This document shows, piece after piece, positions 20,154-27,232 of a stretch of DNA of 64,000 bases. The DNA is taken from contig NZ_CP040846.1 of the NCBI RefSeq assembly GCF_006274605.1, positions 1,123,041 through 1,187,040 of the forward strand. The letters run 5' to 3'. The notes below the pieces were generated by a model. The model searched no databases and was not told the DNA's origin. It saw only the letters and a list, made by a program, of their open reading frames with translations. A program made the translations under genes and the position numbers. Each line of letters begins with the position of its first letter. Positions within the stretch are counted from its first letter, which is position 1. The stretch comes from Thermococcus indicus (GTDB lineage: Archaea; Methanobacteriota_B; Thermococci; Thermococcales; Thermococcaceae).

Positions 20154-20342
20154 ATGGAGGAAGTTGAAAAGATAATCGCCCGCCACAAGAACGAGGATCC
20201 GATATGGCTTGATATTCAGCTGGCAATTCTACTGGGCAAGATCGACAAAAAAGAGGCCCTAAAAAGGGCCAAGGGAGTCATGAAAACCTCCAAATCCTGG
20301 CAGGAGCTGGAGGCGGAGATGTATGATGAGCTTGTTCCTTGA
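20154..20342 (+). CDS. Putative VapB-type antitoxin 2
   Basis: A 62-residue acidic, helical protein (MEEVEKIIARHKNEDPIWLD...) directly upstream of, and overlapping by 20 bases, a PIN-domain gene. No standard DNA-binding fold is obvious. The QLAILLGKIDKKEALKRAKG segment resembles antitoxin families that accompany archaeal VapC. ATG 20154 follows GGTGAGAAG. The role is inferred from position and size. Confidence 0.65.
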   Translation: MEEVEKIIARHKNEDPIWLDIQLAILLGKIDKKEALKRAKGVMKTSKSWQELEAEMYDELVP

Positions 20343-20790
20343 CAGCAACGTCTTCGTCGAGTACATTAAAGGAAATCCAGATGCATCGACACTCCTATCT
20401 ACGGTAATAGATGGCGAGTTTAGACTGTTCACAAACGAGACAGTTTACAACGAGGTTCTTTTCACATACCTGCGCTCAAATATTGGAGGCTACTGGATCC
20501 TCAAAAGGAATAGGGAGGATGTTAAGAAGACCGCAATGCTGTTTATTCATCAGGTTCTGCCCATTTTAAGTTCGACGAATTTCCTCGATACAACTCATGA
20601 GATTGCCCTCATGTCGATTAAATTTACCGCCGAATACGGCCTTCTTCCAAGCGACGCCCTAATCCTCGCAACCGCAAAGTACTACGGTCTTGACGGCATC
20701 GTCAGCCTTGACTCTGATCTCCTTCAAGTTGCACCCAAGGAGGGACTGCTCGCCATTTCAAAGGTTGATGACTTGAGGGAAGGAGAATGA
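20323..20790 (+). CDS. vapC: PIN-domain toxin VapC 2
   Basis: A 155-residue PIN ribonuclease. Acidic active-site positions are visible as D7 in LFLDSNV, a Glu in ETVYNEVLF, an Asp in LLPSDALILATA and an Asp in VSLDSDL. It starts within the antitoxin gene, preceded by GGAG (ATG 20323 or the adjacent 20326). Its stop overlaps the surE start as ATGA, so an essential-looking nucleotidase gene is translationally coupled to a toxin. The tandem VapB-VapC order is canonical. The RNA target is unknown. Confidence 0.83.
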   Translation: MMSLFLDSNVFVEYIKGNPDASTLLSTVIDGEFRLFTNETVYNEVLFTYLRSNIGGYWILKRNREDVKKTAMLFIHQVLPILSSTNFLDTTHEIALMSIKFTAEYGLLPSDALILATAKYYGLDGIVSLDSDLLQVAPKEGLLAISKVDDLREGE

Positions 20791-21563
20791 GAATCCTCAT
20801 CACGAACGATGACGGGATTTATTCCAGGGGCCTGAGGGCGGCTGTCGAAGCTGTGAAAGACCTCGGGGAGGTTTACGTGGTCGCGCCGCTCTTCCAGAGG
20901 AGTGCCAGCGGAAGGGCCATGACCCTTCACCGTCCCCTCAGGGCCAAGCTCGTTGACGTCCCCGGGGCGAAGATAGCCTACGGCATAGATGGAATGCCGA
21001 CGGACTGCGTAATCTTTGCCCTCGCACGCTTTACCGATTTCGACCTCGCCATAAGCGGGATAAACCTCGGTGAGAACCTCAGCACTGAGATAACCGTTTC
21101 GGGAACAGCTTCAGCCGCTATAGAGGCAGCCACCAACGGCATTCCGAGCATAGCGATAAGCCTTGAAGTCAGCAGGGAGAAGTATAAGTTCGGCGAGGGG
21201 AGCGAGGTTGACTTCTCCATAGCCTCGCACTTCCTGAGGAAGGTTACGCGGGCCGTTCTAAGGGATGGTCTTCCCGAAGGCGTCGACATGCTCAACGTGA
21301 ACGTTCCGGACGATGCGACGCCCGAGACTGAGATAGCCGCCACGAGACTTGCCCACAGGATGTACCGACCGACGGTCGAGGAGCGCATAGACCCCAAGGG
21401 CAACCCGTACTACTGGATAGTCGGCAGGAAATGCCGGGAGTTCGAGCCCGGAACTGACGCCTACGCCCTCAAGGTTGAAAGAAAGGTCAGCGTGACCCCA
21501 ATAAACATAGATATGACCGCGCGGGTGGACTTTGAGAACCTATACAAACTTTTAATCCTTTAA
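20787..21563 (+). CDS. surE: 5'/3'-nucleotidase SurE
   Basis: Metal-dependent phosphatase that removes phosphate from nucleoside 5'- and 3'-monophosphates. The 258 residues show the SurE signature at the N-terminus (ITNDDG, metal ligands D8/D9), the SASGRAMTLH loop, and the SGINLGENLSTEITVSGT motif with the conserved Ser and Asn. Length is typical. The ATG overlaps the vapC stop (ATGA). Codon use is normal for the genome. Confidence 0.95.
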   Translation: MRILITNDDGIYSRGLRAAVEAVKDLGEVYVVAPLFQRSASGRAMTLHRPLRAKLVDVPGAKIAYGIDGMPTDCVIFALARFTDFDLAISGINLGENLSTEITVSGTASAAIEAATNGIPSIAISLEVSREKYKFGEGSEVDFSIASHFLRKVTRAVLRDGLPEGVDMLNVNVPDDATPETEIAATRLAHRMYRPTVEERIDPKGNPYYWIVGRKCREFEPGTDAYALKVERKVSVTPINIDMTARVDFENLYKLLIL

Positions 21564-21698
21564 TACATCTTTACGTTTTATAGTATGCAATTGTATTCAT
21601 TAAGTTTAGTTTGGGGAAGAGTAATGTGCCGACTTATTAACTTTTGTCCACACAAGATTTATTAAGTGTATTGGAGAATATATCCACTGGTGGTTCCC

Positions 21699-23024
21699 TT
21701 GAAGAAGTGGCGGACGATGGCATTTGCAGTCCTTTTTGCGGTTTTAGTTTTGAGTAGCCTCACTGGAGCTTTAAGCATGGTTCCCCCGAAGGGCCACACT
21801 GGTTCCGTCACGCCAGCTGAAGCCACGTCTGTCGCTCAGAGACACCTGCAGTGGGCATCTTCAAACCTGCCCGGATTTGAAGACTGGAAGAACGCAAAGC
21901 TTTCCCAGCCTGTGGTGTACTACTTCCCCAACGGAACCAAGAGCGCCTACGAGTTCACCGTGCTGGTGAACGGAAAGCCCAATGGATTCATACTCGTGGC
22001 GGCTCAGAGGTACATGCCCCCCGTTCTTGAGTTCAGCAAAGGCGAGGCACCCAGCAAAAGGCTGGGAAGAATCACTGCGACCAGAATAAAGGGCTTTTCA
22101 ACGGAACGGCACAGGTTGCTCTATTACGGGGCGTTAAGCTATAGTGTGGAGCTAAAAAACGGAAAGGCCATGGACATCTACGGCAGACATATTCCTGTCC
22201 CAAAAACTGTAGGACTCTCATTCTCTCCAAAACGTGTAGCAGACGCATGGGGAGCCTTTGAGACTCCCTCAGCAAGTGAACCTATGGTTGAGATTCTCTC
22301 AGAAGACATTTATACCAAAATCATACCTAACGTTCCGGTGTGGACAGAGGACTCATACTTTGGAGACCCGGGAAATGGGTATATTAGCTATCCAAACAAT
22401 GTCGGGCCAAGCGCTGACCCCTGGGACGCATGGGACGGGTGCACTCCAATTGCCGCGGCCCAGATTATAGCGTATTATGAGCACCCAGAAATCTATGAAA
22501 ACGGTTATTACACTCAGGAATACAAGGAGTACATGACGTCTTTGGTTGATATCCTCCACTACACCATGGGAACGTTTGATAAGGAAGGCAATCCCGGACA
22601 GACTTACGTGTGTGGGAGACGGGGCCCTGATGCATGTGATGGCATTGAAGCATTTGCCAGCGAATATCAAAAACTGAAGAACGAAGGAATTGTTTCGTGG
22701 TCTCTCGTCCACAGTTACGATGCACAGCCAACATGCACATGGGGTTTGTGCTGGTTGCATGCATACATAAACGCGGATGATGTCATTGATGAAGTTAACG
22801 CCCACAGACCTGCCCTACTCCAGTTAGACAATGGTGGAATTGCAGTGGATAGACAAAAAGCATATGGAAACCATAGCGTGGTTATAGTTGGGTACGTTGG
22901 AAACAGCTACACCATCGACTACGTAGTGATCCATGATGGGTGGGACATGAGCGAGCATTATCTCGCGTGGGGCAACTGGGGCTCAGATACTCACCTCGTG
23001 AAGGTAATTCCTAAGAGGAGGTGA
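21699..23024 (+). CDS. Secreted papain-fold cysteine peptidase (C10/C39-like)
   Basis: A 441-residue exported protein. The TTG start at 21699 has GGTGG 5 nt upstream and gives a signal peptide MKKWRTMAFAVLFAVLVLSS. Residues about 30-150 resemble the inhibitory pro-domain of streptopain-type (C10) peptidases (YEFTVLVNGKPNGFILVAAQ, PVLEFSKGEA). The C-terminal half has the catalytic Cys in DGCTPIAAAQIIAYYE, the His in GNHSVVIVGY and an Asp/Asn partner in VIHDGWD. I see this as a zymogen-like extracellular or surface cysteine protease; the exact MEROPS family is uncertain. The A+T content is visibly higher than in flanking genes. It opens the accessory island and is 4 bases from the first of the small membrane proteins. 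Confidence 0.75.
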   Translation: MKKWRTMAFAVLFAVLVLSSLTGALSMVPPKGHTGSVTPAEATSVAQRHLQWASSNLPGFEDWKNAKLSQPVVYYFPNGTKSAYEFTVLVNGKPNGFILVAAQRYMPPVLEFSKGEAPSKRLGRITATRIKGFSTERHRLLYYGALSYSVELKNGKAMDIYGRHIPVPKTVGLSFSPKRVADAWGAFETPSASEPMVEILSEDIYTKIIPNVPVWTEDSYFGDPGNGYISYPNNVGPSADPWDAWDGCTPIAAAQIIAYYEHPEIYENGYYTQEYKEYMTSLVDILHYTMGTFDKEGNPGQTYVCGRRGPDACDGIEAFASEYQKLKNEGIVSWSLVHSYDAQPTCTWGLCWLHAYINADDVIDEVNAHRPALLQLDNGGIAVDRQKAYGNHSVVIVGYVGNSYTIDYVVIHDGWDMSEHYLAWGNWGSDTHLVKVIPKRR

Positions 23025-23028
23025 ATTC

Positions 23029-23499
23029 ATGAGACTTCGCTCGCTCCTCTATCTTTTCCTCTTCCCTGCATGGGAGTTCCTGCTCATGATCTTACTTTCC
23101 CCAGGATATTATGTTAAAGCATCCTGCCTTCAGATACATCCATATCCAATCTGCGGCTTTCACTTTAGCCCGTCGGCAACTTTCGTCCTCCTCGTGACGG
23201 CACCGTTCTTAATCTCAATTATCCTCGGTCTCTGGAAGAAATGGGACGAACTCGTAGCATTTGGAGTTCCTTCCTTTGTCGTTGTTTTAGTAACGATTAT
23301 CCTCCTGTATCTCTTCGAAAAGTCATGGATTTCCTTTTTCGTGCCCGTAATAGTCTCGGTGGTCCTGTATAGCCTCCCATGTATAAGACTGGACGGCCCT
23401 ATAAAAAGAGCGGAAAGGCTGGTATGGATAGCCACGTCACTCATAGTCTCGTTTATCCTCTGCATTATGGTGTGGAATGGCATATCAATAATGGTATAG
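23029..23499 (+). CDS. Small four-TM membrane protein, array copy A1
   Basis: A 156-residue membrane protein, intact copy of a family I do not recognise. Layout: N-terminal TM (LLYLFLFPAWEFLLMILL), an extracytoplasmic loop with two cysteines (YYVKASCLQIHPYPICGF), then HFSPSATFVLLVTAPF and three further hydrophobic segments. Shared marks across the array are AWE, YYVK, SPS-x-FVLLV and a LWKKW-type turn. It has a full GGAGGTGA site before ATG 23029 and follows the peptidase by 4 bases, so it is likely cotranscribed. Confidence 0.65.
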   Translation: MRLRSLLYLFLFPAWEFLLMILLSPGYYVKASCLQIHPYPICGFHFSPSATFVLLVTAPFLISIILGLWKKWDELVAFGVPSFVVVLVTIILLYLFEKSWISFFVPVIVSVVLYSLPCIRLDGPIKRAERLVWIATSLIVSFILCIMVWNGISIMV

Positions 23500-23550
23500 A
23501 AGAATTTTATAACAAAGGATGTCGTATTTACTGCAGATGGAGGGGGCTTA

Positions 23551-24265
23551 ATGAGGAAATTCCACATTGTCTTCCTGTTGTTGGTTGTCACATTGGCGTT
23601 GATTGCCGCGAAAGTCTCTCAACATCCAGAAAAAAGCCAGTGCTTCTCAACGGTGCCTGTGAACGTCAGCGATGTTAAGCCTCCCATCGTCAGCGGGCCG
23701 GGGTTCCCGCCGAGCTACAAGTTCGGGGGAATAACATTGGATGAGGTTGTAAACGGAAGCCCCCGACACGTGCTCCCCGGGTTTTTTGGCTTTGAAAACG
23801 GCGTCGTGGCCCCTTGAAAAGCCCGCCTGCTACTTTAAATCCCTGGAAGGCGTTTCCGAGAACTGGACTGGGATTATAGCACCCGGCCTGAACGTTGAAG
23901 GAGTTGAGCTCTCCGGAACCCTCCACATGGCCGTTTACTTGTATCCGTTGGAGGAAACGGCAATAATATCCAAGGTGAATTACGGGGAAACGCCGGAGAA
24001 GTCAAAGATAACCGAAGCATTTCGGCTCAAGTATAAGGAACCCCCCAGTGAGATCGTGGACGCCTACATTTCCAAGCTTAAGGACTCGGGCTATACCGCC
24101 GTCAGGGAGCTTTCCGGAGGTCTTTTCAAGGGTTGGATTTTCAGGAAGGGAAATAATTACCTGCTCGTGCTTAAGGTTAGAGACCAGGGCAACCTGTACC
24201 TGCTCCTCGCCAGAGGTAATGAGAGGGACATCAAAAAACTCGCTGACTCAATTTCCCTTATGTGA
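23551..24265 (+). pseudogene. Secreted/membrane-anchored protein gene with one frameshift
   Basis: Reading starts at ATG 23551 (signal or anchor MRKFHIVFLLLVVTLALIAA), preceded by a GGAGGGGG site, and stops early at 23817. The frame that continues to 24265 resumes at LEKPACYFKSLEGVSENWTG. Joining both frames near the CCCC run at 23810-23813 gives one sensible protein of about 237 residues, so a single-base indel (or a sequencing error) is the simplest reading. The product has an extracytoplasmic domain with sequons, ends DIKKLADSISLM, and has no known motif. It lies between membrane-protein copies A1 and B1. Confidence 0.55.
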
Positions 24266-24277
24266 GGTGATGTGGTG

Positions 24278-24770
24278 GTGAGGCTCAGAGGGCCCCCTCC
24301 TCCACATTTTTGTCCTCGTCTCAGCAACGGCGTGGGAGCTTGTACTTGCCTATAATAGTCGGGCCATCAGTGAGTATTATGTTGAGAAAGGCACAATTTT
24401 TTTTGAGAACTGGACAGGTGGGACAGGGGGACCCTGCATTTCTTGGAGCAAATACTCCCCCTCATTAGAGTTTGTTCTCCTAGTCCTACTCCCTACACTC
24501 GTCCTGATTATCTTATACCTTTGGTTTAAGGAGCCCGCCCTAAAGAAATCGGCACTCTCAATAGGGTTGCCTGTTTTGTCAGTGATTGTTATCTATTTTA
24601 AAACTACAGGACCGGGTGTTTTATTGGTTCTGATTGTTGTCTCGGCTGCGGTTGGTGGAGTAGTTGGGAAAGACAAGTGGGAAAAAGTGCTACTCAGTAT
24701 TGCGGGCTTTCTACCAAGCCTTATAATAGGTATGATAATAGCGGCTGAACTCACAGCCGTATGGTGTTAA
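24278..24770 (+). pseudogene. Array copy B1, frameshifted near its start
   Basis: This copy starts at GTG 24278 (RLRG-), then falls out of frame within the G/C run at about 24290. From LHIFVLVSATAWELVLAYN on it is open to TAA 24770 and matches the intact copy at 25288: AWEL, EYYVEKG, SPSLEFVLLVLLPTLVL, ALKKSALSIGLPVL. One base must be added or removed to join start and body. It may be a decayed paralogue or an assembly error. Confidence 0.55.
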
Positions 24771-24788
24771 TAAGGGGTGAGTGAACCC

Positions 24789-25260
24789 ATGAAACTCAGC
24801 CCTCTCCTTTACCCTTTCTTCTTTCCAGCATTGGGAGTTCCTGCTGATGGTTTTACTTCCACGGGAGTACTACGTCGGGGTTTCCTGCCTTCAGAGGCAT
24901 CCGTATCCAATATACACTTTTCACTTCAGCCCATCACCAGCGTTCATTCTCCTCGTGATAGCGCCGTTTATAGTCTCAATTGCTCTTGGCCTTTGGAAAA
25001 AATGGAGTGAGTTCATAACGTTTGGAACTTTTTCGCTCGCCGTTGTCGTAGTAACGCTTCTGCTCCTTTACCTCTTCGAAAAGTCTTGGATTCCCGTTGC
25101 CAGCCCCATAGTTACATCGGCAGTATTGTATGGCCCCTTCTGTGGGAAGATGAAGTGCCCAACAAGGGAAGAAAAACTAGTGTGGGTAGCGACGTCGCTC
25201 ATGACCTCGTTCATCCTCTGCATTATGGTGTGGGCGGACATCGGGAGCAGTATAAACTGA
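24789..25260 (+). pseudogene. Array copy A2, frameshifted near residue 15
   Basis: ATG 24789 follows GGGGTGA and encodes MKLSPLLYPFFFPA. An extra T at about 24831 (ATTGGGAG against ATGGGAG in A1) then shifts the frame. Removing it gives WEFLLMVLLPREYYVGVSCLQRHPYPIYTF, closely parallel to A1, through LWKKWSEFI and YLFEKSWIP to the stop at 25260. The body is otherwise intact (137 codons open), so the damage is recent or is a sequencing artefact. Confidence 0.6.
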
Positions 25261-25287
25261 AAATCCAGCCAGTATGGGGGTGAGCCT

Positions 25288-25749
25288 GTGAAACTCAGAG
25301 AACTTCACATTTTTGTCCTTGCCTCAGCAATGGCGTGGGAGCTTTTCCTCGCATACAACGCACCCCAGCTGGACGACTACTACATCAAAGGCGGAATGAT
25401 TCATCTGAGCAGTGGAGTCATCAAATGCTGGAGGGAGTACTCACCATCATTAACTTTTGTTATTCTCGTTCTCCTCCCCGCTCTCGTCTTGCTCGCCCTG
25501 TATCTCCTCTTCAAGAAAGCCACCCTAAAGAAATCGGGTCTCGCGATTGGAGTGCCCGTTCTGTTGGTGGTTCTCGTCTCCCTCATAAACCCCGATAGTT
25601 CTCTCTTGGCCCTGCCCGTCATCTCCGTCGGCGTTGGTGCTGTGCTCGGGGAAGGAAAAGGGGAGAAGGCGTTGCTCGCTATCGAGGGCTTTTTGCCGGG
25701 TTTTGTTGTGCTTACGATAATACTCGGCGGGCTTGCGGTCAGTTGCTGA
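25288..25749 (+). CDS. Small membrane protein, array copy B2
   Basis: Intact 153-residue membrane protein, GTG start at 25288 after GGGGGTGA. It has an N-terminal TM (IFVLASAMAWELFLAY), a loop with DDYYIKGG and one cysteine, SPSLTFVILVLLPALVLLALYLLF, a Lys-rich turn, and further hydrophobic segments ending GGLAVSC. It is homologous to B1 over its whole length and more distantly to the A copies, which share AWE, YY-x-K and SPS-x-F. Function is unknown. Confidence 0.65.
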   Translation: MKLRELHIFVLASAMAWELFLAYNAPQLDDYYIKGGMIHLSSGVIKCWREYSPSLTFVILVLLPALVLLALYLLFKKATLKKSGLAIGVPVLLVVLVSLINPDSSLLALPVISVGVGAVLGEGKGEKALLAIEGFLPGFVVLTIILGGLAVSC

Positions 25750-25765
25750 TGGAAGGGGAAGCACC

Positions 25766-26217
25766 ATGAGACGAGTCATGCCATTCCTGCTCCCCATCGT
25801 CGAGTTCGCACTTGCCTTTGCCGTCCCGCGAGAGGACTACGTGAAGGCCCTCTGCTGGTCGAGAAGCCCTCCCGCCTGTTCCTTCGAGTTCTCTCCCTCC
25901 CCGGTCTTCTTCTTAGCCGTTGCGCTTCCTTCGTCCTTCTCACGGTTCTCTCGCTCTGGAGAACCTGGAGGGAAACCGCCATTCTCTCGGGCTCCGCTGG
26001 AGTCGCCGTGCTCATCGGTACCGCGCTCTTAACCTTCCAAGAAGAAACTGCTCTGCTGGCCGTTCTAATCCTCTCGCCCCTTCTCCAGTGGGTGTTTGCA
26101 AAAGTTGCGGGGGCTCAAATCGAAAAGAAGGGAGGAGCTCTCCGGACGGTCCCAGCCGTCCTGAGCTTCATCGCCGTCTCGATTGTGGTGCGCATGGGTC
26201 TAGCAGTGAGTATATGA
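25766..26217 (+). pseudogene. Array copy A3, frameshifted
   Basis: ATG 25766 encodes MRRVMPFLLPIVEFALAFAV, then EDYVKALC and FEFSPSPVFFLAVAL. At about 25926-25932 one base appears to be missing. Restoring it continues as PFVLLTVLSLWRTWRE and on through the frame ending at TGA 26217 (RMGLAVSI). The order of motifs (YVKA, C, FSPS-x-F, LW-x2-W) is that of A1 and A2. It ends 1 base before the convergent ftsY stop. It is more G+C-rich than the other copies. Confidence 0.55.
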
Positions 26218-26218
26218 T

Positions 26219-27202
26219 TCACCCCTCTCCAAAAATCCTCTCCACAAACCACTTCTCGTCGAAGGGCCTTAGGTCGTCGTAGCCCTGACCAACGCCGACG
26301 AAGAGTATCGGCGCTCCAATCGCGTGGCTTATGCTCAGAGCCGCACCGCCGCGGGCGTCAGCATCGAGCTTGGTGAGGATTACGCCGTCTATCTTAACCG
26401 CCTCGTTGAACTGCTTCGCCTGCTCTACTACTGAGTTGCCGGCAAGGCTGTCGCCGACGAATATCACCAGGTCCGGCTTGGTTACGCGCGCTATCTTCTT
26501 CATCTCGTCCATGAGGTTTCTGTTCAGCTCGTTCCTCCCGGCGGTGTCTATGAGGACGACATCCAATCCCCTGGCCTTTGCATGCTGGATCGCGTCGTAG
26601 GCAACCGCAGCTGGATCTGCTCCGTAGGAGTGCTTGATGACCTTGACGCCGACGCGCCTTGCGTGCTCCTCGACCTGCTCTATCGCTCCAGCCCTGAAGG
26701 TGTCGCTCGCGGCTATGACGACGCCGAGACCGTTCTTCCTGAGCCAGTGGGCGAGCTTGGCTATGGTGGTCGTCTTTCCGGAGCCGTTGAAGCCCACGAA
26801 GGCTATGACGAAGGGTTTCTCCTCCTTGGACTTGATGAGCTCGATGAGGTCTATCTTCTTCTCGGGGGTTAGAATCTCCAGTATCGCCTCCCTGAGGCCG
26901 TCCTCAATGAGCTTGCCTTTGTTGGTTCCGATGCGAACTTTCTTCCCAACGAGATTCTCATTGATTTTCTCCCTCAGGGCTTCCACGGTTTCGAGGGCAA
27001 CGTCCGCCTCCAAAAGTTCAATTTCCAGCTCGTCCAGTGCCTCTTCAACGTCCTTCTCCTTTATCTCAACCTGGAGGAGCTTTTCAATGAACCCCTTTTT
27101 TTCCTCTGGAGTCCCCTTTTCAAGGGTCTTCTCTTCCTCCTCTATCTTCTCTTCAACGGTCTTTGTGAACTTCTTGAGCTTTTCCCGGAGTTTTCCGAAC
27201 AT
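26219..27202 (-). CDS. ftsY: Signal recognition particle receptor FtsY
   Basis: SRP receptor GTPase that docks SRP-ribosome complexes at the membrane. It has 327 residues: an acidic N-terminal segment (about 10-40), the N domain, and the G domain with P-loop GFNGSGKTT (137-145), [15 protein letters not shown] and TKLD motifs. The C-terminus reads [16 protein letters not shown] 27202 is favoured by GGTGG at 5 nt; the GTG at 27211 is part of that site. The TATA box is TTATATAGG at about 27238. Confidence 0.96.
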
Positions 27203-27232
27203 CTTCACCACCTGATGAGCGAGCGACTTAAG

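What the first reader, a model, noticed from the sequence alone, without database searches (positions are those of the whole stretch)
23029..26217. Tandem array of an undescribed family of small membrane proteins
Five paralogous 150-160-residue multi-TM proteins (A1, B1, A2, B2, A3) lie head to tail behind a secreted papain-fold peptidase, with one other secreted-protein gene. All share AWE, YY-x-K, Cys in the outer loop and SPS-x-FVLLV. Tandem copies of small membrane proteins beside an exported protease recall immunity or envelope-defence arrays; I know no family that matches.
Basis: partly seen in the sequence, partly recalled or inferred. Interest (0 to 1): 0.65.

Follow-up and report, generated by a model that had tools for sequence, protein, structure and literature searches.

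The report
Archaeal protease and membrane-protein immunity-like array
A hot-vent archaeon (Thermococcus) carries a stack of small membrane-protein genes behind a secreted protease whose active half is swapped between strains, which looks like a toxin-and-antidote system with spare antidotes, a type of weapon rarely described in these archaea.

Summary
The array is real. Five tandem paralogues (TMP) and one secreted protein (SEC) follow a secreted papain-fold peptidase (PEP) between surE and ftsY in a Thermococcus genome. Three TMPs and SEC carry single-base frameshifts; PEP, A1 and B2 are intact. TMP matches no Pfam, NCBIfam, PADLOC or PDB family and occurs in 39 of 115 genomes of the phylum, in two genera only, nearly always at this site; in eight related genomes surE and ftsY are adjacent or nearly so.

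New evidence supports a polymorphic toxin/immunity reading. PEPs share a conserved I69-like propeptide but carry three exchangeable catalytic domains (AU test p=0.004). Type I is followed by TMP with a 4-nt gap, type II by SEC, type III by a third secreted protein. Orphan C-terminal ends of type I PEP precede TMPs, usually with the same gap, in about ten other genomes. TMPs move between species (dS 0.05-0.3 against about 0.6-2.9 for most flanking comparisons), persist intact and under purifying selection without PEP, and are always intact beside intact type I PEP (6/6). I infer that TMPs are membrane immunity proteins against type I peptidase and that the array is a polyimmunity locus. Toxicity and protection are untested.

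The parts
21690..23024 (+). PEP, type I: secreted papain-fold (C10/C39-like) cysteine peptidase; signal peptide, I69-like propeptide (about 21780-22064), exchangeable catalytic domain (about 22290-23021; Cys251 at 22440, His395 at 22872)
   Evidence: Pfam below cut-off: C10 E=4e-4, C39_2 E=8e-4, I69 E=5e-3; conservation and types; intact
23029..23499 (+). TMP A1, intact, about 5 TM, starts 4 nt after the PEP stop
23551..24265 (+). SEC: membrane-anchored secreted protein, +1 frameshift near 23800
24278..24770 (+). TMP B1, +1 frameshift near 24293 (89% DNA identity to an intact copy in L091)
24789..25260 (+). TMP A2, +1 frameshift near 24831
25288..25749 (+). TMP B2, intact; model pLDDT 89.6: helix, short helix, extracellular beta hairpin (33-51), four helices; dS 0.06 to the single TMP of genome G017
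25766..26217 (+). TMP A3, -1 frameshift near 25927
20787..21563 (+). surE, left border of the variable site
26219..27211 (-). ftsY, right border of the variable site

Best explanation
The locus is a polymorphic toxin/immunity-like system of Thermococcus. PEP is exported as a zymogen with a constant I69-like inhibitory propeptide and a catalytic domain that strains exchange by recombination. The gene right behind each catalytic type is its cognate partner: a 5-TM protein (TMP) for type I, a membrane-anchored extracellular protein (SEC) for type II, another secreted protein for type III. TMP most likely protects the producer's envelope from type I peptidase, perhaps by binding it at the outer beta hairpin or shielding its membrane target. 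Extra TMPs left when PEP modules were displaced or lost form a polyimmunity array against peptidases of neighbouring Thermococcus; unused copies decay. Shown: the anatomy, domain swap, linkage, orphan tails, transfer between species, purifying selection, loss pattern. Inferred: proteolytic attack on competitors, immunity, the binding mode.
For: (1) Propeptide 69-93% identical across 11 hotspot PEPs, but catalytic domains form types at least 70% alike within and 33-46% between; propeptide and catalytic trees conflict with strong support and the AU test rejects one type I clade in the propeptide (p=0.004). (2) Type I is followed by TMP, type II by SEC, type III by another secreted ORF. (3) Gap of 4 nt from PEP stop to TMP start, kept before orphan tails. 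(4) One genome holds type II PEP - SEC - orphan 164-aa type I C-terminus - TMP (L132), like CDI orphan modules (PMC3150448). (5) TMP dS 0.04-0.3 between species whose flanking genes mostly differ by dS about 0.6-2.9. (6) Intact TMPs in genomes with no PEP match (G022, G026, G043), under purifying selection (L123-L124 dN/dS 0.28; L111-L112 0.19). (7) The TMP next to an intact type I PEP is intact in 6/6, distal copies 7/14 (p=0.044); intact type II PEP occurs with only a broken or partial TMP in two loci. (8) All 17 genomes with sizeable hotspot PEP have TMP (p=2e-8, not corrected for kinship). (9) Empty sites in relatives.
Against: No toxicity, protection or binding has been tested. All catalytic types are one superfamily, unlike classical polymorphic toxins. 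In the window itself no PEP tail precedes B1, A2, B2 or A3. TMP subtypes next to type I PEP vary freely, so no fine pairing of subtypes is visible. PEP-SEC pairs elsewhere in Thermococcus genomes need no TMP. The association counts are not phylogenetically corrected and some rest on draft genomes. C10 zymogens with adjacent inhibitors exist that are not known as toxins against competitors (PMC2873492).
Confidence: 0.55

Rival explanations
1. PEP is an ordinary secreted digestive or processing protease, and TMP/SEC are its dedicated self-protection or maturation partners (like SpeB-Spi or Bacteroides C10-inhibitor pairs), with no role in competition.
For: C10/I69-like architecture; C10 proteases lie beside co-transcribed inhibitors thought to protect the producing cell (PMC2873492); PEP-SEC2 pairs at other loci are two-gene units without arrays.
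Against: Arrays of TMPs, intact TMPs in genomes without PEP, catalytic-domain swapping and transfer between species are not expected for a housekeeping pair.
Confidence: 0.25
2. TMPs are diversifying surface proteins (virus receptors, superinfection-exclusion or adhesion proteins) and the peptidase merely rides with them at a recombination hotspot.
For: Variable outer hairpin (mean identity 26%) beside a conserved SPS-TM2 (49%); at least one chimeric TMP (L121); standalone occurrence.
Against: The fixed 4-nt PEP-TMP junction and tails that come only from the PEP C-terminus tie TMP to PEP; TM3-5 vary as much as the hairpin; no hit in phages or PADLOC.
Confidence: 0.12
3. The array is mostly selfish or neutral debris: tandem duplication and decay at a tolerant intergenic site.
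For: 24 of 71 copies broken or partial, four frameshifts in the window, empty sites.
Against: 47 intact copies, dN/dS 0.14-0.5 for most close pairs, single intact orphans kept in many genomes.
Confidence: 0.08

Closest known systems
CDI/Rhs polymorphic toxins with orphan CT/immunity modules (Poole et al. 2011, PMC3150448)
   Same: Conserved N-terminus, exchangeable C-terminus, cognate gene right behind it, orphan C-terminal fragment plus partner downstream, exchange between strains
   Different: No large adhesin or VENN-like boundary; the toxin would be a secreted zymogen; all C-termini are papain-fold; partner is a multi-TM or secreted protein; archaeal
Homogeneous polyimmunity loci (Zhang et al. 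2012, PMC3482391)
   Same: Tandem same-strand paralogues, variable number between strains, one locus per genome
   Different: TMP matches no named immunity family in the libraries searched; the array is often headed or interrupted by PEP, its tails or SEC
C10 (streptopain) zymogens with adjacent inhibitors: SpeB-Spi, Bacteroides Bfp-Bfi (PMC2873492)
   Same: I69-like propeptide, papain-fold catalytic domain, partner gene immediately adjacent
   Different: Match below Pfam cut-offs; partner TMP is a polytopic membrane protein; SEC shows no similarity to the propeptide; swapped catalytic types
VARTIG, hypervariable Thermococcales module (Makarova et al. 2021, PMC8416519)
   Same: Hypervariable Thermococcales locus with membrane proteins, recombining C-terminus, exchange between species
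   Different: No large Ig-type protein heads the loci examined here; a recognisable enzymatic effector is present; the VARTIG paper names no peptidase or ftsY

Membership tests
Polymorphic toxin system | Conserved N-terminal part joined to exchangeable C-terminal effector domains | tested here: met
   Identity matrices and conflicting trees, AU p=0.004
Polymorphic toxin system | Cognate immunity gene immediately downstream that changes with the effector type | tested here: inconclusive
   The position is met: type I to TMP, type II to SEC, type III to another secreted ORF; counting fragments 11 against 5, p=2e-4 uncorrected. That these genes give immunity is not shown
Polymorphic toxin system | Orphan effector C-termini with partner genes downstream | tested here: met
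   L100/L132, L099, L095, L098, L102, L113 and others
Polymorphic toxin system | Effector domains of diverse toxin families | tested here: not met
   All three types are papain-fold peptidases with conserved Cys and His
Polymorphic toxin system | Toxicity and specific neutralisation | not testable with these tools
   Needs experiment
Polyimmunity locus | Tandem same-strand immunity paralogues with small gaps, number differing between strains, one locus per genome | tested here: met
   0-5 copies per site, same strand; immunity itself untested
Polyimmunity locus | Not interrupted by toxin genes or cassettes | tested here: not met
   PEP heads the array, PEP tails and SEC lie inside it
Peptidase family C10 with I69 propeptide | Match over curated Pfam cut-offs | tested here: not met
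   C10 21.2 of 26 bits, C39_2 20.4 of 24, I69 17.6 of 25
Peptidase family C10 with I69 propeptide | Propeptide, then catalytic Cys and His in order | tested here: met
   C251 and H395 invariant in the 13-sequence alignment; activity not tested
VARTIG | Large Ig-domain protein (arCOG07710) heading the locus | tested here: inconclusive
   No such ORF seen between surE and ftsY in the loci mapped; no Ig profile was run on them
Known transporter or respiratory family (TMP) | Match in Pfam, NCBIfam, PDB sequence or fold | tested here: not met
   Only sub-threshold hits for a few members (LrgB E=3e-4 in 5 of 46); best fold match E=0.85

The most novel reading that the evidence does not exclude
A kin-discrimination system of hyperthermophilic archaea in which a zymogen protease with a constant inhibitory propeptide and swappable catalytic half attacks relatives, and 5-TM proteins of a new family act as surface immunity stored in a polyimmunity array: protease-based polymorphic toxins with membrane immunity in Thermococcales.
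Probability: 0.4. Interest if true: 0.82.

Novelty: new variant of a known kind. Interest (0 to 1): 0.62.

Why it matters
Antagonism among hyperthermophilic archaea is almost unexplored at the molecular level. VARTIG, the hypervariable Thermococcales module described in 2021, has no identifiable effector. This locus has a recognisable enzyme, a modular swap, defined candidate immunity genes and natural strains with every combination (type I, type II, orphan immunity only, empty site), so conflict between archaeal species can be tested directly. It would also be a case where a protease zymogen is the exchangeable unit and polytopic membrane proteins are the immunity.

Tried and rejected
Known family for TMP: Pfam, NCBIfam, PADLOC, PDB sequence and Foldseek gave nothing significant. 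Plasmid or phage carriage: no tblastn match to A1. SEC as a propeptide-like inhibitor (Spi type): no profile similarity to PEP. SEC fold: model poor (pLDDT 49), so no fold search was made. TM-SEC fusion in other genera (L128-L130) as a link between TMP and SEC: profile comparison inconclusive. First-part/second-part scan for chimeric TMPs found one clear case, L121; L108 looked chimeric by eye but did not pass. The 2019 archaeal toxin survey (mBio 00715-19) is not held, so prior mention there cannot be excluded.

Full report
Setting. The window is G000:C1:1123041-1187040, 2.23 Mb, in a genus whose other members match records titled Thermococcus (contig lengths 15963, 14983 and 47679 equal those of G056, G046 and G058). 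The array lies between surE (20787-21563, +) and ftsY (26219-27211, -).

Observation. PEP 21690-23024, A1 23029-23499, SEC 23551-24265, B1 24278-24770, A2 24789-25260, B2 25288-25749, A3 25766-26217. Alignment to intact homologues shows one single-base frameshift each in SEC, B1, A2 and A3, none in PEP, A1 and B2. A- and B-type searches converge on one family of 84 segments. The B2 model (pLDDT 89.6) has a first TM helix, a short helix, a beta hairpin at 33-51 and four more helices; no significant fold match.

Distribution. TMP occurs in 39 of 115 genomes of the phylum, in two genera; in G000 all six segments are in this array. Of the loci mapped, most lie beside rSAM, surE and ftsY, with 1-5 copies each, 47 of 71 copies intact. 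Among genomes without TMP, eight (L144-L147, L153, L154, L157, L158) have surE and ftsY adjacent or within about 110 bp; L144 has SurE 93% identical to the window. L159 keeps only scraps of PEP, B and A. G073, of another genus, has the set at another place with a transposase-like ORF inside it.

Domain swap. Eleven hotspot PEPs have propeptides 69-93% identical. Their catalytic domains form type I (window, L091-L095), type II (L100, L115, L116, L117) and type III (L101), at least 70% alike within types, 33-39% between I and the others, 41-46% between II and III. In the propeptide tree L116 (II) pairs with L095 (I), L100 (II) with L101 (III), and L117 (II) sits among type I, all with strong support; one type I clade is rejected (AU p=0.004). 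In the catalytic tree type I is one clade with strong support and type II one clade with 94/93 support.

Linkage. The gene right behind a type I PEP is TMP, behind type II SEC, behind type III another secreted ORF. In L115 the SEC reading frame lacks its N-terminal part. PEP relatives at other loci (about 35% identical) are followed by a secreted protein; SEC and that family are homologous by profile (E=9e-12). The stop-to-start gap is 4 nt in five of six intact type I loci (22 in L092). Orphan type I C-termini, 22-165 residues and reaching the end of the protein, precede TMPs in L095, L096, L098 (two), L099, L100 (two), L102, L103 and L113, with the same 4-5 nt gap where measured. L132 shows PEP II - SEC - orphan PEP I C-terminus - TMP. 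This is the layout of CDI orphan modules (PMC3150448), and the TMP run resembles a homogeneous polyimmunity locus (PMC3482391).

Mobility and selection. Close TMP pairs between species have dS far below the flanks: B2 against the G017 copy 0.06 against 0.81-1.32; L093-L094 0.05 against 1.28-2.92. The pairs were picked for high TMP identity, but the flank contrast holds; one pair (window-L097) has one low flank (0.07), L126-L127 one of 0.28, and L123-L124 looks vertical. dN/dS is 0.14-0.5 for most close pairs, including genomes with no PEP. GC of the copies ranges from 0.456 to 0.585, in keeping with mixed origins.

Reading. TMP is tied to the type I catalytic domain by position and history, but outlives it. 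An obligate anchor or exporter would not be kept without its enzyme; an immunity protein would. All six intact type I PEPs have an intact adjacent TMP, while distal copies are intact in 7 of 14 (p=0.044); two type II PEPs (L115, L117) live with only a partial or broken TMP. The same data fit self-protection from an ordinary secreted protease less well, because of the arrays, swaps and orphan genes. Toxicity, target and binding are inference.

Limits. Counts are not corrected for kinship; several loci are drafts; frameshifts lack read support; the 2019 archaeal toxin survey could not be read.

Noticed in passing
window 20154-20790: A 62-aa ORF and a PIN-domain-like ORF (VapBC-like by eye, not searched) between rSAM and surE; PIN is present or absent at this spot in relatives.
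   Followed up: partly
L079, L081-L086, L088, L089: A second PEP type (about 35% identical) at other loci, each followed by a secreted protein homologous to SEC or alike in layout, without TMP.
   Followed up: partly
L128:6127-6852, L129:7452-8162, L130:6206-7003: In other genera PEP is followed, directly or one gene on, by an ORF with N-terminal TM helices and a C-terminal part resembling SEC by eye; profile test inconclusive.
   Followed up: partly
L092:4919-6229, L097:71-313: Transposase-like (TnpB-type by eye) ORFs inside or beside TMP arrays, a possible vehicle.
   Followed up: no
L121:5564-6025: TMP whose first part matches A type (83%) and second part A3 type (68%), evidence of recombination between paralogues.
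   Followed up: partly
L109:966-1139: PEP reduced to residues 1-27 joined to 411-442, an internal deletion.
   Followed up: no
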